Source: a virus. Taken from it: 49,240 nt of DNA. This document shows positions 11,601-41,971 of the stretch, piece by piece. The translations under genes and the position numbers were made by a program. The first letter of the stretch is position 1. Each line of letters opens with the position of its first letter. Under the pieces are notes generated by a model. The model made no database searches. It was not told the origin of the DNA and was given only the letters and a program-made list of their open reading frames with translations. The DNA is taken from positions 1 to 49,240 of IMG/VR virus record IMGVR_UViG_3300046002_002531, one strand, 5' to 3'.

Positions 11601-14600
11601 TGAATAGTTCCGTCTTGTATACCGACTACATCAAATTGATTATTGCCATTGAGAACAAGTAAATTCCATCCGCGATTGACTCCGTTGGCAACTCTGACTA
11701 AAACATCATCGCCGACTGCTACTGGTAATTTTAATGCATCAGTTAATGTGTCAACTACATATTCAAGTTGAGTATCTGTACCATAACCGGGCGCATACCA
11801 ATCAACATAATCCCAATACAAGTCGGTTTTGTAACTTTGTGTTCTAATAGCGGTCCAAGTTTTATCCGCAGACAATTCATATAATACCCATAAATTATCC
11901 TGGGTAGTATCTTGATTTACTAAAACTTTGTATCCTGCGGTTAATAATGCCACATCGAGATAATCTAATTCTATTTCTGTTTCAATTTTTAAATCGTACT
12001 CTCCCAATTTAAAACTAGGCTCTGCTTCAGCTGAACTAATAGTAGTTAGGTCACAGTTTCTTGTAATCGGTTTAGTTATCAAAATACTGTTAGCATATTC
12101 TACTAAGTTAGCATAGGCAGCAATTCTGTCAGCAAATATAGCCTGACGTGGTCTTGTGCCTAAGCCAAATTTATCAGCAACGCTTAGTGTTGGGTCAGGC
12201 ACCTCTGCACCCAGTATATCGATACCAGCCAGACTATCAATTAATTTATTAATAATCTTAGGAGATATTATACTATCTGCATTTCCTTTTTGTACTAGTT
12301 CATATTCACTATGAATAATATTAGTATTCTTAACTGTATTATAGTCAAGGTGCAATATAGTAGTTTGCGCAGACAGATAATCAGCTACATTATATACAAC
12401 AACTGAATTATTCTGTATAACTGCCGCATACGGAATGCCTTGATTTTTTGGATTTTGTATTATATCCTGTATTGATGTTGTGGTCAATTGTCTAGTTTCG
12501 TTAGTTGGATCAACAGTTGTTTTATCTTTGACCCAGTAGAAATATTTAATACTAATAATGTTAGTAACTTGATCAACATAAACAAGTTCAACATAAGCAC
12601 TATCATCGGCATATTTAGGCACGCCATCACCACCGTTGGCAACATAAGCACTAGGTAGATATATACTTTCTACCCACTCTAACACTTCCACAGTTGATCC
12701 AGGGAATAAATTACCCCAATTAATACTGCGATATGTTAATGTATCTTGCTCATAATCTATGTAACTAAGTTGACTTAGATTCCACCACACTTCACCAACT
12801 TGAGTAGTACTCCAGAATATATTATCGTTTAGGCTAACTGCGGTGTTTGTTCCGCGATTGTATATTGCCGGATCATAGCCAGTTTTGTATGATATTTCCT
12901 GATCTGCACGACCGAGGATTTTGCCTTTGGCAGGATCAATGAATTCCAATGATGTTAAAATAGTATTTGTTAAATTACTGTATAGATACATTCTAGTAAC
13001 TGATTCGATGTCTACACGTGGCTCTTGATATCTAATTAAACTCCAACCACGACGACCAGTCGGATTGTTAAACAAGTAGATACTGCCACCATTTTCTATA
13101 GTAGTATCATCAGTTGGTGCACTTACTACAATATGTCCACCGATTACATCAAATGCCGCGCCAAATCCGTCGCCTGAGTTTAAATCTGTTGGATCGAGTT
13201 GTTGACAGAATGCATAACGTCCTGGATTCTCAACATGGTCACGTGGGTCATCATATAATTCATATGTGTAAACACTACCACTTGCTTTAACTTCGTCTAA
13301 TAGTGCTGTAGAATCATCATCGAGTGTTGTGTTAATATTGTGCAGTGTGCTAGTTGAATCTAATAGATATTGTTCTGGATTTACTATTAATTCGTTATAG
13401 GTTAGACTGGTTGGGTCAGTGTCAATAATATATTCAGGTGCGTTAGGATATAATAAGTCTGTATGCGCATCAAATGTAGCATAATGTTTTGTTGTTCCAC
13501 GTTCACTACTAATAACCAGCATGTATGCATTGCGAGCCAAGATAACTTTAGTACCAAAATATTCATTGTTACTACGATATGGGTTAACAATAATCTGCAT
13601 GAACGCAAATATAGCCAAGCCTGCATCTTCATACACTGTACCACTGCCTGATAAGACACGTAAGCGATTTTTAGCTACAGTTTTATCACTGTCTAATCTT
13701 AAGTATCCATTTTCATTAACTGCGGTGATACCTAATAGGTTAGCATCATTAATATCTTCGATTAAACTATCTAAACTTGTACCAGTCACAGTAATTTGGA
13801 AGTTATCTAGTCGAATTGTATTGCCTGGAGTAAACGTTGGATTTTGTGTATAGCCTGTGTTAGTACCGTACAAGGTTCCTCTGTTATGGAATTTCCATAC
13901 TGCACCAGTATTGTAAATTGTACCGGCATTATAATAAGGAGCACCAATATAGAATGCGCAGTTGTTTGAACAGATAGTCAGGGCTGTACCAAATCGTGCA
14001 CCTTCTTGAATAGCATTTAGACTACCATCTAAACTGTCAATGCCAATCAATCTTTCTAATAGAGTAAATTCATTTGTTTCAACATTGACAACTTTACCAA
14101 CACCTAATGGAACATTTAATGTAACTGTATTAGTTCCCGGGGTTGCAGTATATTCGCTGCGAGGCAATTCAATTCCGTCAACAGTTACTTTATACACAGG
14201 TGCAATTGTTTCTACTGTGGTATACACTGTACCAGTTGTACTGGTAAATGCTTCGATAACACGATCGTATGCGTATACTGCGCCGGCTTCATCGAGCAAG
14301 TCGCCACTAGAGCCAATTACACTGTCAGCTGGTGCGCCAACACCAAGTTGTGCACCGTTTAAACTAGCATCAATACAAAAACCAAATTCACTGCCCGCCG
14401 GTCCGTTAATAGTTTTAACTAATGTGTAGTACGGACCTTGTGAAATTGTTAGTGTACCATTAACATTTCCAGATATAAATGTTATAGTTGTGCCAGATAA
14501 TGTGTAATCAATATTTGGAATGTATGTACGTGTTGAGCTAGTCACAACTAGTGCATTTGCATCATTAGTAACTTCGGGTGTAAATGGTACTGTTATTGTA

Positions 14601-17600
14601 GATACAGAACCAGATGTAGTAACATTTCCCGTAGCTTTAGTTACAAAGCGTTGTAAGCCATATACATACACTTTTGGAGTTGCTTCGTACGGAGCGCCAA
14701 CATACAACCAGTGGCCTAACTCATCAAACGCAAAGCCATAGCCAAACTGTCCATCGACAGCACTAACATTGCCTGTAATAACCTGTCCTCTATTCCATAC
14801 AGTTTCGCCTTCAAGTTTATTATAGGTATAGATTAAACCAACATTAGCGGCGCCGCCGGCACCAGAACTTGTTGGTGCGTTAACTGCTAACGTTTCTCTT
14901 CCGGCAACTCCATCATCAATGAACGGATCAACTGCTGTATCAATGTGCGAACCGTAAGTAAATGTATTTGCACCATCAGGTGTTATAGTTGTCGATTCAG
15001 TATAGACATTTGAAGTATTTTTATCAAATACATTTACTGCACCTGTGTTAGTAGAAACAGATAAGTTTGCATACAAAGTGGTACCGACAAAAATAGTTTG
15101 CTCGATGTTGTCAATCATTTTTAATGCTTGACCGTAGCCTATGTTTGCAGAATATTCATTATTAGTTGTTAATGAAGATACTGTAGTGTTTGCTGGAAAT
15201 ATATTATTAGTACTAACTATCTGACTTGTGCTTACATTAGATGCATTACTACTAGTAAGGAAATTTGATATAATGCCCACTGCATTACCTGTAATAGTTG
15301 TGATATTAGTCACAGCATTTCCGCCAATGGTTAATGTACTAGTTGCATTGGCCAGTGCCACATTACTAAATGTAATGTACATATCATTGGTTTTAACTAG
15401 ACGTTGATCCATTTCCCATGGGTGTGTTTTTTCGTATACTTTCCATGTACCGCTTGGTTGCGTACCAAATGGCTGGCCTTGTACAGCATTAGTTTCCGCA
15501 TCTTCATCGATCCAAATCTTTTCACCGACTTTCCATTGATGCGGCGGCGTATATAAACGTGCAGTTTCCATGTAGTTAAAACGTACACTGTCTAGAATAA
15601 ACAACATGCCGTCGCCATCTAAGGTAGTTAGTTGTGAAGTGTCACCTGCGTATCTGACTAATATGTTATCAAGGTCTATTACACTGTCGACTTGATAGAA
15701 GCCGTCGAACTCAGTGGCAAAACTACGAACTAAAAATATGTCGCCAGCAACCAATCCATGAGGATTAGTGGTGGTAAATGTTACATATCCATCTAACGAG
15801 TTAGCCACTGATGTAACTGTATTATCAGTTTCTGTTACTCGATATACATTCCAGTTTTGCGAAAAGTCTTTTGCACACCATATAGTATAGCCAGTACCGA
15901 TTGCAGATAATTGATTGTTCAAATCAGTGAAGTTGGCTAGATCAAATATAGTAGTATCAACATCATCGATATTTACATATCCAGCAGTAGTGATATCGTT
16001 ATTGTAATCACTTTGTGCATCTCTATCTAATGCAATAATTCCGTTATACTGCTCGGTTGATTTATATAATTGTGATTTGTTAAATGTAGTTACACCGTCA
16101 CTGCTGGAATCAGTTACAAATGTAGCAGTTGCAGGATTAACTGAAAATGCTTTTTCATCGAGTGCAATTTCCACGTATGGGTTTGTATCTAATGCACCAT
16201 ATTCGCCCACACGTATTGCCCATTCTTCATAGAAATTTATGGCACTGCTTAAATTATTAAATTCTGCACTGGTCAATTGATTAATTGCATTAGCAGAACC
16301 TTTTTGTTTAATGAATCCTTTGTATAATTCAATTTGTGTCGTATCACTTAAACCAAGATCTGACAGATATTGACGTGTTTTAAATCCAATTAATCCATGG
16401 CTGTAGTTGATTTGATCCGCATCTTTAAAATTTGTATATGAATCATAATATACCTGAGATTTAGCAGCAATGGTGGCAAAGTTTGGCAATAGCCCTTTTT
16501 TAATTTCACTTGCGGCAATTTGTTTCCAATAAGCAAAGGCAAATTCAGCATTAGTTGTTTGAGTAACATTATTCAATGCAACATAATATTGATTTTTATA
16601 TTGTACTAGGTCACCTTTTAAATAATCTTTATTACTGGACCACGCATCTATGTTGCCAGAATTGTAGATGAAGCCTGGCGCACTTAAACTGCCATCCCAG
16701 TCTGCGGTTTTTTGTCCAATCAATTTTAACCTGTATTGTCTATTACCAAGTTCAGGTTTGTAAATGATATCATTAAACACTGTGGTGTTATCAAAAATTA
16801 ACACATGCTCGTATTGTACTAGATTTAATTCAATATAGCCAATAACTGCATCATTGGTCAATGTTAATTTAAATGCAGTTGGGCTACGTAACACATTGTA
16901 ATTTGTAGTTTTAACCAAGGCAAAATTTTGATCTAATACTTTTGAACCATGCTGACTATCAGTAATTGCATCAGTGATTGCACCAACTGTAACTGCATTT
17001 ATTGTGTTAGCCACCGGTGATAATACTAAGATACTGCCCGGTGCCCAACCTTGCTGTGCCCAGAATAAGAATTCTTTAGTTGATAGTTTCCAGTTGCGTG
17101 TTTCGCCTAGTTGTTCATCTGTGTCATTGAAGGTAAAACCCTGCGCCATTAAATATCTTTCGTAGCTAATTAAGAAATCAGCTATTTGTTGTTGGCTATT
17201 AAACTCATACCCATAAGGTACGGTTAATTTTAAGTTTTGATAATCTTTAAACACTGTTACTGAATTAGTTAATACAGTAATTTTGTATGCATTTGAATTT
17301 ATCACACTTGGAATAATAGTAAAGTACGGGTTAGCTAAATTATACCCACGTACACTATAGCCATTTGTGGTCTTTTCAATAATCACACCACTGTAGACTA
17401 GTTTGTCAACAGGCGTCGATTTATACAAATGTACATTATAATTTTCATTTGGTACAATAATACTATCATTTGTACTGGTCGGTGAACTTTGTTCTGCTAA
17501 AATTTGTAGATATTTTTGATCACTAAATCCGGCCAGTTTATATGCAAGATTAATTTGATAATGTGATATCAGCGGAGTAATAACAGTAGCAGGATCTACA

Positions 17601-20600
17601 CCTTGATGTATTAAAAAGTCAGCAATCCAGTTTATATAACCGGCGGTTCTAACCACAGTGCCAGCTGATGTGTCACCATTGAATGTCAGTGATGTTTGTT
17701 TAATGTGATCATTGGTATCAGTTACATATTGCTCCAACATAGTATTTTTTGAATAACGTGACACATCCATTAATAGACTAAAATACTTGGCTGGTTTAGC
17801 CAATGCCAGTGCTTGTTGTACAGCAAACGCAAAGTCACTGCTGTGGCGCCACGCTGTTTCGACCGGTCCCTGTTGTCCTACTGCCCATGCAGTTGCCGCA
17901 TGAGTAGCATTAAATGATGCAGTCATTATTGCTGCCGGACTTAATAAAAATCCGTTTGCATCAACTGGTATAACTTCTGACAATCCAGGGCGTGCAAAGG
18001 TTGTATCTATACCTGCGCGAGTACCTTGTTTAATCAATCCAGCTTCTAGGTCGTCCCATAGTAATTTATTGCCGCCAGTATAAGGTGCAGGACCGTATTC
18101 TTCTACCCACCATGATGGCATGGTAGAGAAACCCAACATCTCCCACGGAGTTAAATGCGGACGTAATGTATCATAGAAATATTGATAGCATGCTCTCCAA
18201 CTACCTGGTAATGCTTCACTATCAATTCGATCCACAAAACGGCTGTAATTCCATGTAAAGGGATCATTGCTGTCAAATGTGTCGTTGACTGTGAAATCAA
18301 TTTTATTATTGCCTATCCATATAAGGAAATTCTTAGACGTTAATTGATTTATTTCATTTATCGAATAATCATTATTTCTAAATTTACCCGGCATTACGTT
18401 ATAAATGTCTTGATAGCTACCGATATCACGCAGCGTGATGTTATTGTATATACGTTTTTCTAACTCTAATAAAAATTCATCTCTATAATCATCAAATGCT
18501 GGTGTTATGCTACCGTCGTGGCCGCGAATAACATTAATGGATGTACGATAGGTATCGTCTAAAAAGATCTCAGGAATAAATTTAGGATATAACCCTAACT
18601 TAGTTGGAGTTTCTGGTACATAAGATCCATTAGTATCTGCATATTCTACAATTTTAACATTGTCATCAACTTCCAAAGTAACAGTGTCGGTAAACGTTAT
18701 TGCTGGACGATCTGTATCAAATGTATAATCTATATCTATTATTAACTGTACATCATTTAAATAAACAAGTACTGCTTTATTACTTAATGCACGGGCATCG
18801 AATGTTGTAGTAATTTCATATGAACGAACCAATGGGTCAAATATTGTATAGCCCACGCCATTGACAATATTTTTTAATGTACCATACGGTATCATGTCAC
18901 TGTAATACCAAGGGAACGTACTGTTTTTAATCTTATTAATTTCGGTTATGATTAAATCAACACTGGCCACAGGATCAGTCGGTTGTATGCCAGACAAAGT
19001 TACACTTAACTCTAAAAATTTATTTTTAAATCTAGCATATTCTTGCTGTGCGTAACGAACGGCGTCAATAAAGTTTGTGCTGTCATTTACTAAAAATAAT
19101 GCTGCATTCGATAAAGGTGCACTGTGTTGTAATATGGTGCCGCCTTGTGATTTAATCTCAATATCTCTAAGATTACTATCACTGAGTACATCACCCACTA
19201 ACTCTGTACTATTTTGACTTAGTTCCACTAGGTGATTTCTGATTTGACCCAATGTCAATGTTGATAAATCAGTATTTTGTGCATTGAGCTCTAGATTTTT
19301 TGGTATCTGGTATTGCCCAAGCGCACTTACTTCATTACTATAGACTAGAATGTCGATCTTATCACCTATAGTAGGTGCAGTGGATAATGTCAATGCTCCA
19401 TTTGTTAAAGTCCATTGAGATGTTTTTAAGAATACATTATTTTTATAAACTTTAACATATGGTATCGTAACTGCATCTGGTACAGTGACATCAATTTTAA
19501 ATGGACTATTAATACCATCGTATACATAGGTAATCAATTGATATTGATTATTTTTTTCAGTAACTGTATTCCAATTATTTTTTGGTAGTGATGTGTATCT
19601 ATCTACTATTTGATGTAGGAACCCTGTGGCAATTCGTTCAGTAAGTTGAGTTTGATTAGCTACATAACTAAACGTATCAGTATCAAAGTAATTGATGAAT
19701 TCAATATTTCCCTGAGTTTGGAATGATGTGTAAGTCAGCGGAAAGGCCAATACTGAATCAGAAATAGTGCCGGTACTTGATCTGTTGTAGCCAAATAATC
19801 GTGTGCCGGTAAACGTACTCAACGGATAAAGCGAAAAACTCTGTTCAGCACTATCGTACATGTCAAATAACGGATCTTGTTGTAGGCTAGTTTTTTGCTG
19901 ACTAGCTATCCAAGTATCACCATTGTACCACCACTGAGTGCCTTTGTAAACACCATCAGTTATAACTACAGAATCGTAAGTTTCAACTGCACCATCGGCA
20001 GCTGGATTTAAATTTATATATTTGGGCCCAGTTAATAATCCTTCACCATCAATTGCAGTTTGCACTAAATTAAGTACAAAAATTTTATTACGAACCAACG
20101 GATCAACATCGTTGGCAAATATAACTCGCATGCCATCAAATAATGTGACTCCAAACGCTACAGAAAATACCTGTCCATTCAAATTATTAAATGCATCTTG
20201 TGTTGTAGTATCTAATATATCAACTGGTGCTTTTCCAATCCTGCCGTAATTGAACAATTGCAGGTCTGATTCAAACTGTACAATTGGACGACGTGCGCGA
20301 AGGTCTTGGTCAAATATATATTGTTCATTGTTATAGGTAGCAGTGGCAGTGATTATATCTCGATGGAACCATCGATTATTTCTCGACCATGCATTTAAAT
20401 CTACACTAGCTCTGTTAATGGTAATATATTCTGGATACACAGTGTCTCGACGTGTATTGATTACTGATGTTCCGCTGGCAATGCCTGTTCCAGTTATAGC
20501 CGATCCATTTACTATTGAAGATACATCGCTCAATGTAACAATGTACAAAGATCCAACTGTAACTTCATAATATACTTCAACTTCAATAGTGCCAATGTTA

Positions 20601-22168
20601 ATAACAGTACCTGCAGGGATTACATCTGTAGTAACTGCACTTAAACTAATTCTATTCAATGGATAATTAGTGATAATCTCATCATTGTAGGGTTCAGGTG
20701 TAACTAATAATGTTGTATCAACTAATTGTATGCCTGTAGCAGACCCTACTCCTTCTACATAATATTCCTTATCCTGATATGTTGCTGGGATAGCATCAGT
20801 ACCAAATCTTATTTTCAATCCGCTAGTAAATACCACTCCATTGGGACTGGTGTATGTAGTTTTTCCTAAAATATCATTTTCAACATCTATAGACCAGCCA
20901 GCGATATCAACTAGTTTAATTGTACCATAGATAGACGGATTGTTACCATCTTGAAAGTACAAAGTATCTTGTATACTTGATATCACAGGAACAACATGAA
21001 AAAATCCATCATAATCTTTAAAGAATTCTTTATTGGCATTAACTACACCAGATCTGATATAGACCTTTTCGTTGATTTGTACATCTTGTACACAGGCCAA
21101 TCGAATTAATGGATCGTTGATATCACCACTGTCTGCAAATTGTACACGCCAAACTCCGTAACGTTGTGCCTCGGGTATTACCTCGCCGGCATTATAGCCA
21201 GACACAATATCACCGTTGCCATCGTAAACATTAGGTACAGTCCATGCTTCTTCACCACGGTTTGTTAATAAATTTTGATCAATGAATATTGCAGTTTTAC
21301 CGTTGAGTTGAGTAGCAACACCTGCATAGCCTGGAAACGCAGCAAGGAATTGACTAACAGTATGATTTTGTATATCAGCATAGGCAAGAGGCACTGCGTA
21401 CTCTACGTTGGCCACTACATTCATTAACACATATCTGTCTTGGGCACTTGCCTGCGGCACATTAAATGTAATTGTACCCGAGTCTGCACCGTTGTTAATA
21501 ACTCCGAATACATCACGTGTACTAACTGTCGGAGTTGCATTTACTAGACCATCTACACCTAATTCAGTTTGTATCCAGAATTGATTACCCAATTGATCAA
21601 CTTCAAATGTGTATCGGCCACCACGTGCTAGAGTAAGAGTATTTTTTGTCGGGCTAGTAGATGTAAACTCGTAACGAGACGAACTTACATTACGAACAAC
21701 ATTATAGGTTTTTTCTAAATCAACTCCGCTGGTGTTAACATCAACAGCGTTTGGACCATCTGCAAGCCAGTAGTATTGACTAAAATTAATAAATTTATCA
21801 AATGATATTTGTGGGTCAAAGCTATAATATTCGTCGTCAAATAATCTATCATGGTTTGCAGTTAGCCCACCATAATATTCAATTTTGTTTAACAGATCAG
21901 TATAACTGGCAAAAAATGTAATTTCTTGTCGATCATTGCGAACAACAATACCTGGTTCAAGTTGATACTTTTGTCTTTCAGCTGAATTTTCGATTACATA
22001 GCTGTCTTTACTTTTATAAGTTGGAGCAAATGTTCTTCCGATATAGCCGTGTATATTTCTTAAATTTGGCTCAGTTACTAACTGATCCATTGTTGCCGAC
22101 AAAAACTTATTGTTAGTATCGGTTTGAAATATGGTAGGAAGAAAATTTGAAGTCTTTTTTGTCGCCAT
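8654..22168 (-). CDS. Giant (4504 aa) baseplate-associated structural protein, gp7 position
   Basis: One unbroken frame of 13.5 kb. The N-terminus (FLPTIFQTDTNNKFLSATMD, then FDPQISFDKFINFSQYYWLA) is conserved in very long structural proteins of T4-like environmental phages. Its place immediately after gp6 is that of T4 gp7, the wedge protein of about 1030 residues, so it is more than four times longer. Visible modules: a chitin-binding-like (CBM5/12-type) motif near residues 1840-1886; seven FG-GAP-like units near 2340-3050 that could close an integrin-type beta-propeller; a duplicated YGGSGYTSEPIVTI / SGSGYYITPTVIINGG segment near 3688-3755; a second CBM5/12-like motif near 3790-3840; and three 'LSGNVxxxxGDYITQ' units in the last 600 residues. 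A CTTAAATAC late-type motif precedes it. It is probably a baseplate protein with a long outward adhesive arm; the gp7 homology itself is inferred from position. Confidence 0.75.
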   Translation of the reverse strand: MATKKTSNFLPTIFQTDTNNKFLSATMDQLVTEPNLRNIHGYIGRTFAPTYKSKDSYVIENSAERQKYQLEPGIVVRNDRQEITFFASYTDLLNKIEYYGGLTANHDRLFDDEYYSFDPQISFDKFINFSQYYWLADGPNAVDVNTSGVDLEKTYNVVRNVSSSRYEFTSTSPTKNTLTLARGGRYTFEVDQLGNQFWIQTELGVDGLVNATPTVSTRDVFGVINNGADSGTITFNVPQASAQDRYVLMNVVANVEYAVPLAYADIQNHTVSQFLAAFPGYAGVATQLNGKTAIFIDQNLLTNRGEEAWTVPNVYDGNGDIVSGYNAGEVIPEAQRYGVWRVQFADSGDINDPLIRLACVQDVQINEKVYIRSGVVNANKEFFKDYDGFFHVVPVISSIQDTLYFQDGNNPSIYGTIKLVDIAGWSIDVENDILGKTTYTSPNGVVFTSGLKIRFGTDAIPATYQDKEYYVEGVGSATGIQLVDTTLLVTPEPYNDEIITNYPLNRISLSAVTTDVIPAGTVINIGTIEVEVYYEVTVGSLYIVTLSDVSSIVNGSAITGTGIASGTSVINTRRDTVYPEYITINRASVDLNAWSRNNRWFHRDIITATATYNNEQYIFDQDLRARRPIVQFESDLQLFNYGRIGKAPVDILDTTTQDAFNNLNGQVFSVAFGVTLFDGMRVIFANDVDPLVRNKIFVLNLVQTAIDGEGLLTGPKYINLNPAADGAVETYDSVVITDGVYKGTQWWYNGDTWIASQQKTSLQQDPLFDMYDSAEQSFSLYPLSTFTGTRLFGYNRSSTGTISDSVLAFPLTYTSFQTQGNIEFINYFDTDTFSYVANQTQLTERIATGFLHQIVDRYTSLPKNNWNTVTEKNNQYQLITYVYDGINSPFKIDVTVPDAVTIPYVKVYKNNVFLKTSQWTLTNGALTLSTAPTIGDKIDILVYSNEVSALGQYQIPKNLELNAQNTDLSTLTLGQIRNHLVELSQNSTELVGDVLSDSNLRDIEIKSQGGTILQHSAPLSNAALFLVNDSTNFIDAVRYAQQEYARFKNKFLELSVTLSGIQPTDPVASVDLIITEINKIKNSTFPWYYSDMIPYGTLKNIVNGVGYTIFDPLVRSYEITTTFDARALSNKAVLVYLNDVQLIIDIDYTFDTDRPAITFTDTVTLEVDDNVKIVEYADTNGSYVPETPTKLGLYPKFIPEIFLDDTYRTSINVIRGHDGSITPAFDDYRDEFLLELEKRIYNNITLRDIGSYQDIYNVMPGKFRNNDYSINEINQLTSKNFLIWIGNNKIDFTVNDTFDSNDPFTWNYSRFVDRIDSEALPGSWRACYQYFYDTLRPHLTPWEMLGFSTMPSWWVEEYGPAPYTGGNKLLWDDLEAGLIKQGTRAGIDTTFARPGLSEVIPVDANGFLLSPAAIMTASFNATHAATAWAVGQQGPVETAWRHSSDFAFAVQQALALAKPAKYFSLLMDVSRYSKNTMLEQYVTDTNDHIKQTSLTFNGDTSAGTVVRTAGYINWIADFLIHQGVDPATVITPLISHYQINLAYKLAGFSDQKYLQILAEQSSPTSTNDSIIVPNENYNVHLYKSTPVDKLVYSGVIIEKTTNGYSVRGYNLANPYFTIIPSVINSNAYKITVLTNSVTVFKDYQNLKLTVPYGYEFNSQQQIADFLISYERYLMAQGFTFNDTDEQLGETRNWKLSTKEFLFWAQQGWAPGSILVLSPVANTINAVTVGAITDAITDSQHGSKVLDQNFALVKTTNYNVLRSPTAFKLTLTNDAVIGYIELNLVQYEHVLIFDNTTVFNDIIYKPELGNRQYRLKLIGQKTADWDGSLSAPGFIYNSGNIDAWSSNKDYLKGDLVQYKNQYYVALNNVTQTTNAEFAFAYWKQIAASEIKKGLLPNFATIAAKSQVYYDSYTNFKDADQINYSHGLIGFKTRQYLSDLGLSDTTQIELYKGFIKQKGSANAINQLTSAEFNNLSSAINFYEEWAIRVGEYGALDTNPYVEIALDEKAFSVNPATATFVTDSSSDGVTTFNKSQLYKSTEQYNGIIALDRDAQSDYNNDITTAGYVNIDDVDTTIFDLANFTDLNNQLSAIGTGYTIWCAKDFSQNWNVYRVTETDNTVTSVANSLDGYVTFTTTNPHGLVAGDIFLVRSFATEFDGFYQVDSVIDLDNILVRYAGDTSQLTTLDGDGMLFILDSVRFNYMETARLYTPPHQWKVGEKIWIDEDAETNAVQGQPFGTQPSGTWKVYEKTHPWEMDQRLVKTNDMYITFSNVALANATSTLTIGGNAVTNITTITGNAVGIISNFLTSSNASNVSTSQIVSTNNIFPANTTVSSLTTNNEYSANIGYGQALKMIDNIEQTIFVGTTLYANLSVSTNTGAVNVFDKNTSNVYTESTTITPDGANTFTYGSHIDTAVDPFIDDGVAGRETLAVNAPTSSGAGGAANVGLIYTYNKLEGETVWNRGQVITGNVSAVDGQFGYGFAFDELGHWLYVGAPYEATPKVYVYGLQRFVTKATGNVTTSGSVSTITVPFTPEVTNDANALVVTSSTRTYIPNIDYTLSGTTITFISGNVNGTLTISQGPYYTLVKTINGPAGSEFGFCIDASLNGAQLGVGAPADSVIGSSGDLLDEAGAVYAYDRVIEAFTSTTGTVYTTVETIAPVYKVTVDGIELPRSEYTATPGTNTVTLNVPLGVGKVVNVETNEFTLLERLIGIDSLDGSLNAIQEGARFGTALTICSNNCAFYIGAPYYNAGTIYNTGAVWKFHNRGTLYGTNTGYTQNPTFTPGNTIRLDNFQITVTGTSLDSLIEDINDANLLGITAVNENGYLRLDSDKTVAKNRLRVLSGSGTVYEDAGLAIFAFMQIIVNPYRSNNEYFGTKVILARNAYMLVISSERGTTKHYATFDAHTDLLYPNAPEYIIDTDPTSLTYNELIVNPEQYLLDSTSTLHNINTTLDDDSTALLDEVKASGSVYTYELYDDPRDHVENPGRYAFCQQLDPTDLNSGDGFGAAFDVIGGHIVVSAPTDDTTIENGGSIYLFNNPTGRRGWSLIRYQEPRVDIESVTRMYLYSNLTNTILTSLEFIDPAKGKILGRADQEISYKTGYDPAIYNRGTNTAVSLNDNIFWSTTQVGEVWWNLSQLSYIDYEQDTLTYRSINWGNLFPGSTVEVLEWVESIYLPSAYVANGGDGVPKYADDSAYVELVYVDQVTNIISIKYFYWVKDKTTVDPTNETRQLTTTSIQDIIQNPKNQGIPYAAVIQNNSVVVYNVADYLSAQTTILHLDYNTVKNTNIIHSEYELVQKGNADSIISPKIINKLIDSLAGIDILGAEVPDPTLSVADKFGLGTRPRQAIFADRIAAYANLVEYANSILITKPITRNCDLTTISSAEAEPSFKLGEYDLKIETEIELDYLDVALLTAGYKVLVNQDTTQDNLWVLYELSADKTWTAIRTQSYKTDLYWDYVDWYAPGYGTDTQLEYVVDTLTDALKLPVAVGDDVLVRVANGVNRGWNLLVLNGNNQFDVVGIQDGTIQLKTSNGNFVNNKTPTTEIRYIITALKDDIFVGELDTEFNKLFFVMINYLFNEQKYVDWIFKTSFISVSHKLRSLLQYPNYIKDNQTYYESYITEVKPYSTKIREYSINYDSTDEFAGSVTDFDLSPYYDTDTKIFRSPSGEDVIKDEALWQTDTYNQWYANRNHRVESIVVEYGGSGYTSEPIVTIVDGGLAATGATARAIIDFDSGAVTSIELLTSGSGYYITPTVIINGGCTIPATAYAILKNKQVRSVNTTLKFDRVSYTSSVQEWAANTAYTAGDIVTHVGSLAGAVRHAFIVNANITSGSTFVHTEDYTRYSSANFTNANDRIVGYYEPTAAMPAIETINKDITIAASVTNSNVLFVTATPGLHKNMTISSNSANATIITEAVSGILLLSGNISANVGDYLTQTRVSNIYNVTSNVATSYWANVFVTANVQILTTLPAIFGNITNAYRVGAYLTEHEFNLTDVISIVDNSTITTTSVYPQATNLTALKLERPQTQTQGNVLIASYRNMGQLLRGIDYPGVQVQGIEFNQAPEFDGATPFDNGLFDNIQYDVDGLPMLDDAAVDTIIQSNYTDLALGTRAEDIDVVGGAYVDAYSSHAPEEMVPGIVFDTLDMQVYTKINGNVDVIAYRMFSNMMREESYLRIADAHATTLASNLAITDTTIVVADASKLTAPFIDTVGLGQIAIPGVIFINGERITYYTRNLLTNTLGQIRRGTQGTGTPALYTAGTLITDGSIDQLVPNVVSNISLSTITPYTVTTTRSYYLSLTGNVSANVGDVITQSVSGASMTVAGIDSVARVLLVIRNNTNSLTYQNNDVALSGNVTVTAGDYITQSSTGANLTVLTSGANVSNISLSYYGITTLTTGKAGSNIAINGSNVAIYPTTITSNVSLSSAIIINGTSTGNVYPLSIVPVGRNDAGNPFVDSNGNVTIVANISLHTTNVWYNLGSGVATDGTGFNGATTEQVTFLKASTATLIAP

Positions 22169-35166: not shown

Positions 35167-36183
35167 ATGACAAATTTATTTAAAAAAGCAGCAATTCTGA
35201 CTGACATACATTTTGGCTTAAAGTCAAATAGTCAAACACACAACGATGATTGTTTAAACTTTGTTAAGTGGTTTATTAGCAAAGCTAAAGAAGAAGGTTG
35301 TGATGTTTGCTTTATGTTAGGTGATTGGCACAATAACCGCGCGGCAATTAATATCATTACGTTAAACTACAGCCTAACAGCACTTGAGTTGTTGGGCCGA
35401 GCCTTTGAGCGTGTTATATTCATTCCGGGCAATCATGATTTATATTATCGTGACAAGCGTGATATACAGTCAGCTGAATGGGCTAGACATATTCCTAACA
35501 TTGAAATTATCAACGACTTCTATCAAGAGGGCGATGTTAGTATTGTGCCCTGGTTAGTAGGCGACGATCATAAAAAGATTCCTAAGATCAATGCCAAGTA
35601 TATGTTTGGGCATTTTGAATTACCAGGCTATTACATGAATGCTATGGTACAGATGCCAGAACACGGTGAGATTAGACGTGAAGACTTCGGGCACATTGAT
35701 CATGTATACAGTGGGCATTTTCATAAACGTCAAACAGGTAAGAATATTACCTATGTAGGCAATGCGTTTCCGCACAACTATGCAGATGCAGGTGACGATG
35801 AACGTGGCATGATGATATTAGAGTGGGGCAATGAGCCAACGTTTCATGCTTGGCCGGATCAGCCCAAGTATCGTGTTTATAGCCTAAGTAATATTTTAAA
35901 AACACCAGAAACACTACTACAAAAAGGCATGCACTGTCGTGTAAACATCGACGTGGATATTTCGTACGAAGAAGCAACGTTTATTAAAGAAACATTCGTA
36001 GGTACGTATAATCTACGTGAACTTACATTAATCCCAGTCAAGCATACTGACATTGGCACAGATATTATGTTAGGTAATATTCAATTTGAAAGTATCGATA
36101 CTATTGTAACTAGTCAACTAACAGCTATTAACAGTGATCATTATAATCCTAACTTATTGTTAGACATCTACAGGAATCTATGA
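35167..36183 (+). CDS. gp47: Recombination endonuclease subunit gp47 (Mre11-like)
   Basis: A 338-residue metallophosphoesterase with the full Mre11/SbcD/gp47 motif set in order: DIHFG (13-17), MLGDWHNN (about 55-62), PGNHD (about 92-96), FGHFELPG and SGHFHKR. These residues bind two metal ions and give 3'-5' exonuclease and endonuclease activity. With gp46 it resects DNA ends for recombination-dependent replication and host DNA breakdown. Length equals T4 gp47 (339). The partner gene gp46 is separated from it by two unrelated genes. No Shine-Dalgarno sequence is visible upstream of the ATG, in keeping with a possible leaderless transcript. Confidence 0.95.
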   Translation: MTNLFKKAAILTDIHFGLKSNSQTHNDDCLNFVKWFISKAKEEGCDVCFMLGDWHNNRAAINIITLNYSLTALELLGRAFERVIFIPGNHDLYYRDKRDIQSAEWARHIPNIEIINDFYQEGDVSIVPWLVGDDHKKIPKINAKYMFGHFELPGYYMNAMVQMPEHGEIRREDFGHIDHVYSGHFHKRQTGKNITYVGNAFPHNYADAGDDERGMMILEWGNEPTFHAWPDQPKYRVYSLSNILKTPETLLQKGMHCRVNIDVDISYEEATFIKETFVGTYNLRELTLIPVKHTDIGTDIMLGNIQFESIDTIVTSQLTAINSDHYNPNLLLDIYRNL

Positions 36184-37073
36184 GGTTCTGCACCGATAGT
36201 AACGACATTATTTGTATAAGTTACCCTTCTGGTGGGTTTGGAAATTTTCTATACTATATATTAAGTGAATTTGCAGACCAAACAGTTAAATTATCAAATA
36301 ACGAATTAACTTTTAGTCAAGACGGAAACAGTCATAGTATTGTAATGTATACCAATACGTATTTTATGGATCCGACTGAATACCAACTGCACTGCGACAT
36401 TGACCCAAAGAATAATAAAGTAGTAGTCCTGTGCGACAATGGGATCAATAACGACTGTTACGATAAAATAAACTTAACATTTCCAAATGCTAAGATTGTA
36501 CGCATAGTAATCGACCCTGCTGTTAGACCTATAATATATCAAACCTGCATAATCAAAGCTGTATGTCAGGATCTTAATGCCAATCACAGCGAACATGTAC
36601 AAAACAATTGGTCCGATGCCGCAGAAGATTATGCTCAGCGAGAAGATTTTACTTTAATGTATCACAACTGGTCATATGGTTGGGAGCCAACTGAATCAAC
36701 GATCAATTTGAGTTTTGAACAGTTGTTAATATCGCCAATTAATACTATAAAAAAATTAATCAACCAGTTGGGTATGAAACTAATCAATGAAGATAGGTTA
36801 ACATTAGTGTTAGCCGATTGGTTTACAGCTAATTCAAAATATTTTAGTGTATACTTTCATGCCAATTTAATTTTATCTGCATTGGAAAATAACAAAAATA
36901 TTGATATATCTCATATAGTTGATCTACACGAACAGGGATATATTAACTATTGTATAGAAAAACGATATAATATTGAAATTCCAGTATATGACTATCGCAA
37001 TTGGTTTCAGTCTACTGAACAAATACAACAAGCAATTATTAAAATAAATGAAAAAAACCTTATTAGCAATTAG
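36180..37073 (+). CDS. Sulfotransferase-like P-loop protein (putative)
   Basis: A 297-residue protein coupled to gp47 by an ATGA overlap. It begins with a strand and a glycine-rich turn followed by a helix, CISYPSGGFGNFLYYILSEF. This resembles the PAPS-binding loop of sulfotransferases (P-(R/K)-SG-(T/G)-FL). Near residues 175-195 the segment NLSFEQLLISPINTIKKLIN recalls the C-terminal sulfotransferase block in which a 'Y/F-E-L--P----KL' helix precedes the acceptor region. The basic residue usually needed in the loop is not obvious, so catalysis is uncertain. It could equally be a P-loop-related protein of unknown role. Base composition resembles the neighbours, apart from rather many Asn/Ile codons. 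Confidence 0.4.
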   Translation: MRFCTDSNDIICISYPSGGFGNFLYYILSEFADQTVKLSNNELTFSQDGNSHSIVMYTNTYFMDPTEYQLHCDIDPKNNKVVVLCDNGINNDCYDKINLTFPNAKIVRIVIDPAVRPIIYQTCIIKAVCQDLNANHSEHVQNNWSDAAEDYAQREDFTLMYHNWSYGWEPTESTINLSFEQLLISPINTIKKLINQLGMKLINEDRLTLVLADWFTANSKYFSVYFHANLILSALENNKNIDISHIVDLHEQGYINYCIEKRYNIEIPVYDYRNWFQSTEQIQQAIIKINEKNLISN

Positions 37074-39535: not shown

Positions 39536-39558
39536 TTTTACCATCCAATACAGGGTGG

Positions 39559-39566
39559 TTAAATAC
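39559..39566 (+). promoter_or_regulatory. Late promoter-like motif (TTAAATAC)
   Basis: GGTTAAATACACACAAC lies 25-32 bp upstream of the Hc1-like ATG. The ATACAC extension is shared with the promoters at 44593 (plus) and 32876 (minus), so the Hc1-like protein is probably made late. Confidence 0.45.
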
Positions 39567-39590
39567 ACACAACAACAAGGAGAAGTAAAC

Positions 39591-39776
39591 ATGGCAATTC
39601 ATGATGATATTTTAGCAGCAGTAGAATTATACGTAGCAGAATCAGAAAAATTTGAAGTTAAAGGTGTTAAAGCCGCAGCGGCACGTGCTCGTGGTGCATT
39701 AGGTGACTTGGCTAAATTGGCCAAAGCTCGTCGTGCAGAAATCCAAGAGAAGAAAAATGCAGCGGCTGCAAAATAA
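39591..39776 (+). CDS. Histone H1-like (Hc1-type) basic DNA-binding protein
   Basis: A 61-residue protein; the start is the ATG nine bases after AAGGAG. A short acidic helix (IHDDILAAVELYVAESEKFE) is followed by a strongly basic Ala/Lys/Arg segment (KGVKAAAARARGALGDLAKL, AKARRAEIQEKKNAAAAK). This layout, including 'KG-KAAA-R-R----L-KL-K--R-EIQ', matches bacterial Hc1-like histone H1 homologues, best known from Chlamydia, where they condense the chromosome. Small proteins of this type occur in T4-like phages. It could compact phage or host DNA. It sits between gp46 and a GIY-YIG-like gene, and has a late-type promoter motif. Confidence 0.65.
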   Translation: MAIHDDILAAVELYVAESEKFEVKGVKAAAARARGALGDLAKLAKARRAEIQEKKNAAAAK

Positions 39777-39783
39777 ATAACGT

Positions 39784-40224
39784 ATGACATACGAATATCC
39801 TTGGACGTACAATGGTGTAATATTTGACTCTGAGGATATTGGTGCATACTACGGTTTCATTTATAGAATAACCAACCTTACTAACGGCTACGATTATGTT
39901 GGCCGTAAGTATTTTAAAACTATCAAAAAAAGACCACCGTTAAAAGGCAAGAAGAACAAACGTCTAGAAACAATTGAAACTGATTGGAAAGACTATTGGG
40001 GTTCTTCGAGTCGACTAGTAGCAGATATCCTAGCTTTAGGCAAGGAACAGTTTAAACGCGAAATTATACATCTATGTCTAAGTCGTGGTGAAACTAACTA
40101 CATGGAAGCGCATTATCAATTTATGGAAGAAGTACTGTTGAGAGAAGATAACTACAATGGTATTATACAAATTAAATTAGGCAAGGGTTCCGTAAAAGAT
40201 TTAAAAATTAATAAAACCAGTTGA
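39784..40224 (+). CDS. GIY-YIG-like endonuclease (putative)
   Basis: A 146-residue protein. YYGFIYRITNLTNGYDYVGR (23-42) fits the GIY-YIG module in degenerate form: a first strand with GFIY, and YVG followed by the catalytic-type Arg and then KYF. Downstream, ETDWKDYWGSSSRLVADI, KREIIHLC and a conserved Glu in NYMEAHYQF match the helix carrying the metal-binding Glu. Similar stand-alone proteins occur in T4-like phages as Seg-like or repair-type nucleases. No DNA-binding C-terminal domain is visible, so target choice is unclear. A 13-base palindrome (CGTATG-A-CATACG) covers the start codon. A sigma70-like promoter overlaps the 3' end. Confidence 0.7.
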   Translation: MTYEYPWTYNGVIFDSEDIGAYYGFIYRITNLTNGYDYVGRKYFKTIKKRPPLKGKKNKRLETIETDWKDYWGSSSRLVADILALGKEQFKREIIHLCLSRGETNYMEAHYQFMEEVLLREDNYNGIIQIKLGKGSVKDLKINKTS

Positions 40225-40249
40225 CCAACAACACTAAACGTATTACAAT
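40221..40249 (+). promoter_or_regulatory. Strong sigma70-like promoter for the non-coding region
   Basis: TTGACC (40221-40226), exactly 17 bp, then TACAAT (40244-40249): five of six matches to each consensus hexamer with ideal spacing. The predicted start is near 40256. No downstream gene on this strand exists until 42023, so the promoter points to an RNA product. Confidence 0.6.
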
Positions 40250-40255
40250 AAACAC

Positions 40256-40840
40256 ATAGCTCCTAGACACCAAGTCACTCTCACAGAAACAAATTCCAAC
40301 TCAGCAGTAAATGTAGTTAAAAGCCCTATTGCAGATTAAGTTCTGTATTCAGAGGAGATCGTGCTCGCGTAATGGCCGCACGTGGAACGTGTAGACTAGA
40401 CTACACACTGAATGGCGACCGTGTATTGTGCTATAAAAAGCGAATCAACAATATAAAAATTAGGTGTAAAAACCGAATGATTTGGGCACTGTGAAAAAGA
40501 TACAACCCATATGATGACATAGTTTGGCTAACTACGGATTATGCATCAACCGTCGCAAGAAGCAAGAGTAGGGAGTACAGGGCGACCGCTTCCGTGTAAA
40601 TGAATATAATCTCTTTTAGTTAGTATGATGAAGCACTCGGATGAAGTCGCTCTGTTTTACTTTGCCTGTAATGGGTGAAGTATGACTATAATCTGGATGA
40701 AGCAGTTCTAAAGTCAAAAGCATTACAGTACATATCAAAGTAAATTAGATTAATTAGATTAGAAGAAAAGGCATGAGCGCAAGCGAAATGCGAATGTCTT
40801 TAGACATTCCTTAAATGTACTTAAATGTCTTTTGCTCTTA
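40256..40840 (+). ncRNA. Candidate large structured non-coding RNA
   Basis: About 585 bases with no good gene, bounded by a strong promoter upstream and a region of hairpins downstream. Complementary segments I can see: TTCTG/CAGAG (40341-40345/40350-40354); CGTGC/GCACG (40360-40364/40378-40382); GTGTAG/CTACAC (40389-40394/40401-40406); a possible pseudoknot from GTCGC/GCGAC (40552-40556/40582-40586) crossing GAAGC/GCTTC (40559-40563/40588-40592); CTGTAATG/CATTACAG (40666-40673/40721-40728) enclosing TGACT/AGTCA (40683-40687/40712-40716); GAATGTC/GACATTC (40792-40798/40803-40809); and AGAAAAGGCAT with ATGTCTTTTGCT (40764-40774/40825-40836) closing a domain that contains a GCAA tetraloop. GATGAAG occurs three times. 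I do not recognise an Rfam-like class; large phage RNAs such as GOLLD or ROOL are of similar size. Confidence 0.5.
40372..40494 (+). CDS. Possible 40-residue ORF inside the non-coding region
   Basis: ATG at 40372 opens a 40-codon frame (MAARGTCRLDYTLNGDRVLC at its start) that ends TGA at 40492-40494. It is basic and Cys-containing. GGAG lies 14 bases upstream, too far for a good ribosome-binding site, and the frame runs through two of the predicted stems. I give it low weight and list it only as an alternative reading of this part of the region. Confidence 0.15.
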   Translation: MAARGTCRLDYTLNGDRVLCYKKRINNIKIRCKNRMIWAL

Positions 40841-40873
40841 TAATGACCTTAGCTTACGTATATCATAGTCAAT

Positions 40874-40897
40874 AAAAAAGCACAATAAATGTGCTTT
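40874..40897 (-). terminator. Rho-independent terminator (minus strand)
   Basis: Inverted repeat AAAGCAC (40877-40883) and GTGCTTT (40891-40897) with a seven-base loop. On the minus strand the second arm runs into six Ts. It lies just after the stop of the small gene at 40902 and ends the gp26-like transcript. On the plus strand the T-tract is weak. Confidence 0.75.
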
Positions 40898-40901
40898 AAT
40901 A

Positions 40902-41120
40902 TTAAAAAAACGGGAGGCCACTTTTTTGGGTCGTTTCCATATTATCTTTAATAATCTTTCCGATAATATCTCTTTCTTGCTGTGTTAAAAACATTGCATC
41001 TTCGTAACTTAAACCACCACGCATATACCAACACATACGTAACGCTTCTTCTCTAAAGGCTTTTGACTCTTTATCGTAGGAATCAAGCAATTCTACGATA
41101 GCATCGTTATCTAAGGTCAA
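40902..41120 (-). CDS. Small tail/baseplate assembly partner (gp51-like?)
   Basis: A 72-residue helical protein with a conserved-looking core, MRGGLSYEDAMFLTQQERDI, followed by IGKIIKDNMETTQKSGLPFF. Small proteins with this 'GG--Y-DA--L---ER--I-K-I--N-E-TKKSG-P-F' pattern follow the gp26-like gene in T4-like phages and are thought to help assemble the baseplate hub. The start is a TTG that overlaps the upstream stop as TTGA, with no separate ribosome-binding site, so translation should depend on termination of the gp26-like gene. No ATG gives a sensible full-length product. Function is inferred from context. Confidence 0.6.
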   Translation of the reverse strand: MTLDNDAIVELLDSYDKESKAFREEALRMCWYMRGGLSYEDAMFLTQQERDIIGKIIKDNMETTQKSGLPFF

Positions 41121-41971
41121 AAGCCGCGAGCGAAAAAACTTGCGTAGTCGAAATCAATGGCTAATTTAAATTCTTTTGAACATTCAGTACATACTACATC
41201 AACTGGTTTAATACTAATTGCCTTAGCTAATTCTTCAATTGTCTGTTGTATTGTACGCAACACAGTTGATTCAGAATTTGTGTAGTACTCTCTAATAAAT
41301 TTTGTGTCTGTTACAATATCACCGTCTTCTGTGGTAATAGCTGCTGTGCAATTAGTTATAGTTTCAATGTTTAATTCAACCATCTTACTAATATGTTCGG
41401 TGTATCTAACTTTTCTAACTTCGGCATCAAGATCTGGATCTGCCAGTGTTTGAATTAACTTTTCTTCTTCAAACACAGTGTTACCGGATTTGCTAATTTG
41501 AGCATAGGTCAATGGTTTAAGGCTAACAGATAATCCATCGGGTAGTTCAACAGTTTTTGAATAATCTGGCATCGATACGGAACCTAAGGTAGCAGTTAAG
41601 TCTACATCATAATCGTGTTCTGTTCCACACTCAGGGCAAGTTGATCCGATAGCCATTGTAGGACCGTAACTAGCAATACGGATAGCAATTAATGTAGTGT
41701 CTACATCAACGCTAGGCATATCCCAAGCGTTTTTAATACTTGGACAGCAACTTTGTATAACATCGACTACACTAGTACCACTGATCAGTGCATCTGGTGT
41801 GCGTAGTGTAATTTCATCTCTAGTGGTCATTGGATATACAGGAAGTTCGCCTGTTACAGGTAGTTCCAATGAGCCTTCTTTCCAAAACCGACCTTCACTG
41901 GTTAACTTGATATACAGCGCAGGTTGGCGAAAGTGTTTAGCCAACGGATTTGCGTTATTGATTTGAGCCAT
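41117..41971 (-). CDS. gp26: Baseplate hub assembly protein gp26-like
   Basis: A 284-residue protein of the T4 baseplate-protein family. It begins with a lineage-typical N-terminus (NPLAKHFRQPALYIKLTSEG), followed by LPVYPMTTRDEITLRTPDAL and IQSCCPSIKNAW. Two zinc-finger-like pairs are present: CPECGTEHDYD near residue 115 and CTECSKEFKL near 265, which could together bind one metal. Such proteins act as chaperones of the hub or tail-tube tip and are followed by a small coupled partner, as here; this recalls the paired tail chaperones encoded upstream of tape-measure genes in other tailed phages. It is transcribed divergently from the tape-measure gene from a palindromic late promoter. Confidence 0.7.
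   Translation of the reverse strand: MAQINNANPLAKHFRQPALYIKLTSEGRFWKEGSLELPVTGELPVYPMTTRDEITLRTPDALISGTSVVDVIQSCCPSIKNAWDMPSVDVDTTLIAIRIASYGPTMAIGSTCPECGTEHDYDVDLTATLGSVSMPDYSKTVELPDGLSVSLKPLTYAQISKSGNTVFEEEKLIQTLADPDLDAEVRKVRYTEHISKMVELNIETITNCTAAITTEDGDIVTDTKFIREYYTNSESTVLRTIQQTIEELAKAISIKPVDVVCTECSKEFKLAIDFDYASFFARGF

What the first reader, a model, noticed from the sequence alone, without database searches (positions are those of the whole stretch)
40225..40901. Candidate new large structured RNA in a phage late-gene region
This is the only long gene-free stretch in a tightly packed 49-kb region. It opens with the best sigma70 promoter in the window (TTGACC-17-TACAAT) and contains many complementary segments, including nested 8-bp and 5-bp helices (40666-40728), a 7-bp hairpin (40792-40809), a closing helix around a multi-hairpin 3' domain (40764-40836), GCAA tetraloops and a possible pseudoknot (40552-40592). 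It also looks less AT-rich than the neighbouring sequence (not counted). Large phage RNAs such as GOLLD and ROOL have similar size and context, but I do not recognise their motifs.
Basis: partly seen in the sequence, partly recalled or inferred. Interest (0 to 1): 0.75.

Follow-up and report, generated by a model that had tools for sequence, protein, structure and literature searches.

The report
Large folded RNA of T4-like phages
The gene-free gap makes a conserved folded RNA of about 490 bases that well over a hundred uncultured phage sequences share and that cultured giant phages appear to carry, in a related form, in up to five copies; its job is unknown, but it holds two short sequences that always change together.

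Summary
The gap is a real structured-RNA gene. Related sequence lies in 110 of 116 phage loci fetched through flanking genes and in 121 loci fetched by a motif. A curated fold of 16 helices is 98.1% paired across 35 sequences, with 300 doubly changed cells against 86 in shuffles. No Rfam family matches the window. In sister phages, however, Rfam's 141-nt Polynucleobacter-1 RNA sits directly 5' of the same core (14 of 14 loci chosen from one clade). That published motif is therefore the first third of a larger RNA with an exchangeable 5' domain. Cultured jumbo phages have a similar RNA in the same gene slot, 4-5 same-strand copies in each of seven genomes examined; homology to it is likely, not proven. 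Unexpected: two 7-nt repeats flanking a hairpin are identical in 159 of 159 testable RNAs while their sequence changed at least 65 times. No complementary third site was found. Function unknown; probably a stand-alone, trans-acting RNA.

The parts
40322..40809 (+). conserved structured RNA (about 490 nt; transcript ends not mapped)
   Evidence: 110 of 116 loci by nhmmer; curated fold 98.1% paired, 34 of 85 pairs with changes on both sides
40322..40413 (+). 5' domain: P1 40331-40334/40343-40346, P2 40347-40352/40408-40413, P3 40360-40364/40378-40382, P4 40389-40394/40401-40406; replaced by Polynucleobacter-1 (RF01718) in sister phages
   Evidence: P2-P4: 15 of 17 pairs with both-side changes; coordinates; RF01718 in sister loci
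40463..40509 (+). P5 (40463-40474) and P6 (40482-40509) hairpins
   Evidence: P5 1 of 3 and P6 3 of 5 pairs with both-side changes; P6 only 84.6% paired
40519..40542 (+). P7 hairpin, 8 bp, loop GCUAACUA
   Evidence: 6 of 8 pairs with both-side changes
40527..40624 (+). candidate long-range pseudoknot: P7 loop 40527-40534 with 40617-40624
   Evidence: 99.3% paired but almost invariant, so neutral on covariation; clade 1 only; not tested in clade 2
   Evidence: covaries across loop types: 116 of 158 own complements, control 57 of 1264
40565..40614 (+). core helices P8 (40565-40568/40611-40614) and P9 (40571-40593)
   Evidence: invariant or nearly so in A1; P8 varies with its partner in the wider A2 alignment, which is one column out of register between clades
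40639..40645 (+). twin repeat 1 (GGATGAA; family form xGATyAz)
   Evidence: identical to repeat 2 in 159 of 159 testable RNAs; coordinates
40655..40685 (+). P11 hairpin, 13 bp, between the twin repeats
   Evidence: 98.9% paired, 2 pairs with both-side and 6 with one-side changes
40695..40701 (+). twin repeat 2 (GGATGAA)
40771..40809 (+). 3' hairpins P12 (40771-40791, GAGCGCAAGCGA apex) and P13 (40792-40809)
39784..40224 (+). SegE-like GIY-YIG nuclease gene, directly upstream
   Evidence: PF19835 E 1.2e-34; upstream in 58 of 62 motif-fetched loci with at least 2.5 kb upstream
40221..40249 (+). promoter-like TTGACC-17-TACAAT; not conserved as the RNA's promoter
40877..40897 (-). terminator-like hairpin, T-run on the minus strand (fits the convergent genes)
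40902..41120 (-). convergent small ORF (72 aa)
   Evidence: recurring downstream neighbour, cluster of 74
41117..41971 (-). T4 gp26-like baseplate gene, convergent
   Evidence: PF12322 E 8.2e-19

Best explanation
SHOWN: the region is the gene of a structured RNA of about 490 nt. It has a variable, exchangeable 5' domain (Polynucleobacter-1 in sister phages) and a conserved 3' core made of a covarying pseudoknot, a long hairpin flanked by two identical 7-nt repeats, and two 3' hairpins. It lies behind a branched-DNA-type nuclease gene and, usually, in front of a convergent gp26 gene of T4-like phages. INFERRED: it acts in trans rather than as an mRNA leader, because in the window and in most relatives the next gene is convergent; it is probably made with the recombination genes (gp46-like and nuclease) upstream, not from a late promoter; and it works as a folded scaffold whose two repeats make the same sequence-specific contact twice, with two copies of one partner or with the complement of each other.
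For: Homologues in 110 of 116 and 121 of 121 loci (the 121 were chosen by a core motif, and some loci come from the same contig). Covariation far above shuffles and slid controls. RF01718 directly 5' of the core in 14 of 14 clade-2 loci (chosen from a clade with 68 of 160 cores) and in 4 of 13 distant or insert-bearing loci. Nuclease gene among the three nearest upstream ORFs in 62 of 62 motif-fetched loci with at least 2.5 kb: 58 SegE-like, 4 of a PD-(D/E)XK cluster of which one member was identified by Pfam. First downstream ORF of 150 aa or more convergent in 83 of 110 loci. Repeats identical in 159 of 159 RNAs, at least 65 mirrored changes, none caught half-way. No TATAAATA motif at the RNA; the 4 in the window lie at starts of other genes.
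Against: No expression data. In 26 of 110 loci the first downstream ORF of 150 aa or more is on the RNA's strand, so cis action on a following gene is not excluded there. The partner of the repeats is not identified: no complement is enriched within -2000 to +1500 (40 own against 44.2 control), and no distant column covaries with them as a partner. In the small set A1 columns next to the repeats do track them (column 548 with y, mutual information 1.00 but pairing in only 0.28; column 507 pairing in 0.89-0.94); in the wider set A2 the best such value falls to 0.26. Hairpin presentation of the repeats is only weakly supported (repeat 1: 61 of 155 with 4 bp or more, shuffled mean 44.4, maximum 56; repeat 2: 40, mean 31.3, maximum 44). 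Three gp26-linked loci (L032, L033, L037) show no recognisable copy. Cultured phages with a SegE-like gene at other places have no such RNA beside it (10 of 10 examined, out of 444 records).
Confidence: 0.53

Rival explanations
1. Ornate structural RNA of the GOLLD/ROOL type: several copies assemble, by loop contacts, into a protein-free multimer; the exchangeable 5' domain and the conserved 3' core divide the work.
For: Size, phage setting and GOLLD's reported layout (universally conserved 3' region, less conserved 5' region; passages of PMC12286853) resemble this RNA; many covarying hairpins and a covarying pseudoknot.
Against: No Rfam match to any family; no tRNAs in the window or in 20 of 20 loci, whereas GOLLD and ROOL often lie near tRNA islands. 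Kissing contacts need complementary loops; here the repeats are identical and no complement was found.
Confidence: 0.3
2. Cis-acting element: a 3' UTR or leader that controls SegE or a following gene, as the 'y' in the 2010 table row of Polynucleobacter-1 may suggest.
For: It follows a same-strand nuclease gene in all 62 motif-fetched loci counted; in 26 of 110 loci a same-strand ORF of 150 aa or more comes next; the 2010 table row reads 'y y ?' (passage of PMC2864571; I take the second column as cis-regulatory from memory).
Against: In 83 of 110 loci the next such ORF is convergent; inserts of about 745 bp separate the RNA from SegE in L053, L054 and L064-L066; in five cultured jumbo phages the nearest gene on the nuclease side, annotated endonuclease VII in four, is on the other strand.
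Confidence: 0.14
3. The twin repeats are kept identical by a copying process in the DNA (template switching around the hairpin), not by function.
For: Repeats flank a stable hairpin; no half-way states in 154 sequences.
Against: Identity is discontinuous. In family B the inner base differs in 8 of 29 copies while flanking bases match in 29 and 28 of 29. In family A the constant CUC/UCU difference sits next to the matched bases, with a matched change beyond it in only one sequence (L022). Copying should level these too.
Confidence: 0.15
4. Decayed protein-coding or homing-endonuclease gene.
For: It sits next to a homing-endonuclease-like gene.
Against: Longest ORF inside is 40 aa; the conserved pairs change on both sides and homologues differ by insertions and deletions.
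Confidence: 0.01

Closest known systems
Polynucleobacter-1 RNA (Rfam RF01718; Weinberg et al. 2010, PMC2864571)
   Same: In sister phages (18 loci found here) it lies directly 5' of the same 3' core and forms the 5' third of the RNA.
   Different: The window's own 5' domain does not match the model even at E 10; the published motif is 141 nt and its table row names Burkholderiales and fresh water/estuary, not phages (passage). The core, the twin repeats and the phage setting are additions of this work as far as the held papers show.
GOLLD and ROOL RNAs
   Same: Large phage RNAs; GOLLD too has a conserved 3' and a variable 5' region (passages).
   Different: No sequence-structure match; no tRNA neighbours.
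Unannotated RNA of cultured jumbo phages (Munch, XbC2, 121Q, GAP32, CBB and others; found here, 'family B')
   Same: Same slot (gp46, nuclease or other gene, RNA, small ORF, gp26, virion protein) and matched twin repeats around a C/G hairpin.
   Different: About 500-740 nt by alignment, 4-5 copies per genome; sequence match only weak: model R1 E 0.024-0.15 on 5 of 29 copies (alignment seen for one), and the same model gave E 0.02-0.03 inside coding DNA elsewhere; nhmmer found nothing in Munch or XbC2.
IS110 bridge RNA (PMC11208160; title and start of abstract seen)
   Same: One RNA with two sequence-specific sites is the analogy.
   Different: No IS110-type recombinase among the 10 window proteins scanned; the match is an idea only.

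Membership tests
Polynucleobacter-1 (RF01718) | window sequence reaches the family's gathering score | tested here: not met
   no hit in the window, none up to E 10 at 39700-41200
Polynucleobacter-1 (RF01718) | sister RNAs with the same 3' core contain RF01718 as their 5' part | tested here: met
   14 of 14 clade-2 loci, 60-121 bits; 4 of 13 distant or insert-bearing loci
GOLLD / ROOL | match to the Rfam covariance model | tested here: not met
   0 matches at gathering among 4227 families; only four chance-level hits of other families at E<=10
GOLLD / ROOL | frequent neighbourhood of tRNA islands (as reported in PMC12286853) | tested here: not met
   no tRNA in the window or in 20 of 20 loci
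GOLLD / ROOL | homo-oligomeric RNA-only cage | not testable with these tools
   needs cryo-EM or mass photometry
tmRNA | tRNA-like domain and tag frame | tested here: not met
   ARAGORN, Rfam
group I / group II intron | match to Rfam intron models | tested here: not met
IS110-type bridge RNA | adjacent IS110 recombinase gene | tested here: not met
   none among 10 window proteins around the RNA; neighbours of other loci were clustered, not all identified
IS110-type bridge RNA | two loops that pair with two DNA sites | tested here: inconclusive
   two matched repeats; loops weakly supported; no DNA target found nearby
family B RNA of cultured jumbo phages | common descent with the window RNA | tested here: inconclusive
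   same slot and repeat layout, weak model score, no nhmmer hit

The most novel reading that the evidence does not exclude
The twin repeats are strand-exchange sites. Identity without any third complementary site means that the complement of one repeat (template DNA, antisense RNA or a copied strand) pairs with the other. The RNA, or its gene, would then carry out or guide a homology-directed exchange - an R-loop, a strand transfer or a bridge-like synapsis - together with the branched-DNA nucleases encoded beside it. In jumbo phages with about five same-strand, evenly spaced copies, each copy would act on its own locus.
Probability: 0.1. Interest if true: 0.9.

Novelty: new variant of a known kind. 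Interest (0 to 1): 0.74.

Why it matters
It turns an orphan 141-nt Rfam motif into the 5' third of a large RNA of T4-like phages. It suggests that cultured phages (121Q, GAP32, CBB, Munch) carry four or five unannotated copies of a related RNA that can be studied at the bench. It also exposes a sharp, testable regularity, two short repeats that change only together, that no known phage RNA class I am aware of (from memory) explains.

Tried and rejected
Coding gene, tRNA/tmRNA, intron and known Rfam families were tested and rejected. Rfam on eight cultured loci gave only weak, unrelated hits. A blastn search of the window RNA against 50,697 phage records gave only chance hits (12 records at E about 8), and one with the L028 RNA gave none.

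RNAalifold's pairing of columns 357-360 with 491-494 and 267-273 with 551-557 was dropped for helices that pair and covary better or fit the wider set.

A third site for the twin repeats was sought as an exact 8-nt complement inside the RNA (0 of 154), as a 7-nt complement nearby (40 own, 44.2 control) and by mutual information; none was found. With G-U allowed, one 10-nt bin at -170 held 18 occurrences; it was not followed up. The regex-free repeat test agreed in direction but was blurred: of 152 sequences 138 share 7 nt or more, and swapped pairs do so in about 43.

Possible second copies found by the model in two IMG/VR contigs (G002, G004) lie, by my reading of L325 and L326, in coding DNA and were rejected. 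L286 in contig G001 shares only the 5' domain (nhmmer 1e-26).

The SegE linkage count of 101 of 106 includes loci fetched with SegE itself. The unbiased figures are 58 of 62 motif-fetched and 10 of 11 gp26-fetched loci.

Rows dropped: 68 of 231 loci as redundant; 3 of 163 for an incomplete core; L113 from the repeat count, because its contig ends before repeat 2; L030 and one more from the pseudoknot count. Five of the 159 repeat pairs (L064, L019, L036, L031, L030) were judged by eye. Alignment A1 holds one sequence from each of 35 of the 52 clusters; A2 holds the window and 57 of the 102 diverse cores. The 231 loci include some contigs fetched twice. Family B was folded without a shuffle control.

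Literature: search listings only for (one search listed 20 of 1,283 papers and 8 of 212,199, so neither says much); passages read in PMC2864571 and PMC12286853. The term Polynucleobacter-1 appeared in one held paper. No listing described this RNA, but most subscription papers are not held.

Full report
What is there. Between a SegE-like GIY-YIG gene (39784-40224, +) and two convergent genes (72-aa ORF 40902-41120, -; T4 gp26-like 41117-41971, -) lies a stretch without any ORF above 40 aa. It matches no Rfam family at gathering and nothing but chance hits at E<=10, contains no tRNA or tmRNA, and folds better than 20 of 20 shuffles (z -2.57).

Relatives. I fetched IMG/VR loci through the gp26-like protein (36 loci) and the SegE-like protein (80 kept of 207); some contigs were fetched by both. 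Iterated nhmmer finds the element in 110 of these 116 loci. Of the six misses, L012 and L061 end within 200 and 19 bases of the gene, L035 was later found by a covariance model (E 0.0013), and L032, L033 and L037 remain without a hit. With one exact-motif match in 84,980 species genomes this looks like a phage family. Of 231 loci, 163 are non-redundant.

Structure. RNAalifold on 35 diverse full-length members gave 81 pairs, 32 with compensatory changes. I curated the fold by hand. On 85 pairs in 16 helices, 98.1% of cells pair (shuffles 88.2), 34 pairs change on both sides (24.1) and 300 cells are doubly changed (86.4 +/- 7.7), with 0 of 500 shuffles reaching these. One measure, further pair types, does not exceed shuffles (72 against 74.4). 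Partners slid by 1-3 columns pair in 31-44% of cells. Of the 42 failures 31 are CUGAC, where only 10 of 41 match exactly.

The link to a known motif. Rfam scans of relatives gave RF01718, Polynucleobacter-1, in L022, L023, L028 and L031 (4 of 13 distant or insert-bearing loci) and in 14 of 14 loci picked from the clade with the CUCGAGG core (core type checked, where 68 of 160 cores are of this type). In each it lies just upstream of the core on the same strand. The published 141-nt motif is thus the 5' part of a larger RNA whose 3' core is shared with the window, while the window's clade has another 5' domain. The 2010 table lists it under Burkholderiales, fresh water/estuary (passage).

Surroundings. 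In motif-fetched loci with at least 2.5 kb upstream, the three nearest upstream ORFs include a SegE-like gene in 58 of 62 cases and a protein of a PD-(D/E)XK cluster in the other 4; one member of that cluster was identified as PF24608 and PHROG 'RusA-like Holliday junction resolvase'. Among gp26-fetched loci it is 10 of 11, with the same substitute in L019. Downstream, a gp26-like gene is among the three nearest ORFs in 44 of 73, and the first ORF of 150 aa or more is convergent in 83 and on the RNA's strand in 26 of 110 loci. Of 444 phage records with a SegE-like gene, ten examined have no RNA beside it. The four TATAAATA motifs in the window sit at gene starts, none at the RNA; 8.5 were expected by chance.

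Cultured jumbo phages. The same gene order in Munch, XbC2, 121Q, GAP32, CBB, SNUABM_44 and Hallingskeid encloses a gap that is unannotated or, in Hallingskeid, filled with small hypothetical ORFs; Munch has one extra gene there. A search with the Munch gap finds 31 phage records and, in seven genomes examined, five same-strand copies in six and four in 121Q. Spacing is more even than random points (CV 0.08-0.17 in the six, P 0.0001-0.0017 each; 121Q 0.26, P 0.026; start points approximate and genomes related, so not independent). RaK2, Phosso, Atu_ph07 and PA5oct had no match. Twenty-nine copies from six genomes align as one structured RNA, 60 of 102 pairs with changes on both sides (no shuffle control). 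Whether this family B descends from the same ancestor as the window RNA is likely but unproven. The covariance model of the core hits 5 of 29 copies over its full length at E 0.024-0.15 (alignment seen for L316), yet the same model gives E 0.02-0.03 within coding DNA elsewhere. The shared slot and the shared twin-repeat layout carry the argument.

The twin repeats. In the window GGATGAA stands at 40639-40645 and again at 40695-40701, on either side of the P11 hairpin. Across the family the form is xGATyAz. In 154 of 160 cores both copies fit this form, and all 154 are identical although each varying position would match by chance in about 77. Of the other six, L113 is cut by its contig end and five keep identity by eye, two of them with wholly different sequences (L019 ACAGAGAG, L030 TGCGAATAG), so 159 of 159 testable; L035 agrees too. 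On one tree built without the repeats, x, y and z changed at least 28, 19 and 18 times (65 in all) among the 154, with no mismatched state seen. Six of ten haplotypes occur in both clades as split by a simple motif. Family B shows the same pattern: one position matches in 29 of 29, another in 28 of 29, an inner one in only 21 of 29, while paralogues in one genome differ from each other, which argues against one genome-wide partner. No third site explains this.

How it works, in my view. Shown: a conserved, structured RNA with a modular 5' end and matched twin repeats. Inferred: it acts in trans, is made with the upstream recombination genes, and uses the repeats to make one contact twice. A GOLLD-like multimer is the closest working analogy. 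The bolder reading, strand exchange between a repeat and the complement of its twin, fits the absence of a third site and the nuclease neighbours but has no direct support. Expression, ends, partners and function were not testable here.

Noticed in passing
L253, L254, L281-L285, L288-L316: Cultured jumbo phages carry 4-5 same-strand, roughly evenly spaced copies of an unannotated structured RNA in seven genomes examined; some records annotate small hypothetical ORFs inside it.
   Followed up: partly
L286:685-780: A 329-kb IMG/VR contig (G001) has a second place with the window RNA's 5' domain but another 3' part, about 181 kb from the main copy.
   Followed up: partly
39784-40224: Many GenBank phage records call this SegE/GIY-YIG family 'NAD synthetase', as does PHROG 447; it looks like a propagated misannotation.
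   Followed up: no
8654-22168 (-): A single ORF of 4504 aa in a phage contig.
   Followed up: no
36180-37070: Sulfotransferase-like protein, just below Pfam's cut-off, in a phage.
   Followed up: no
39555-39773: Small histone-H1-like (Hc1) protein, recurring upstream of SegE.
   Followed up: no
L250:5720-6745: Sinorhizobium phage Phosso has a 1-kb gap at the same place beside a Holliday junction resolvase gene, rich by eye in hairpin-like sequence, without other relatives in the phage set.
   Followed up: no
41983, 42005, 44593, 5241: The only four TATAAATA motifs (T4 late promoter, recalled) all sit at starts of genes, although the count is below chance.
   Followed up: no
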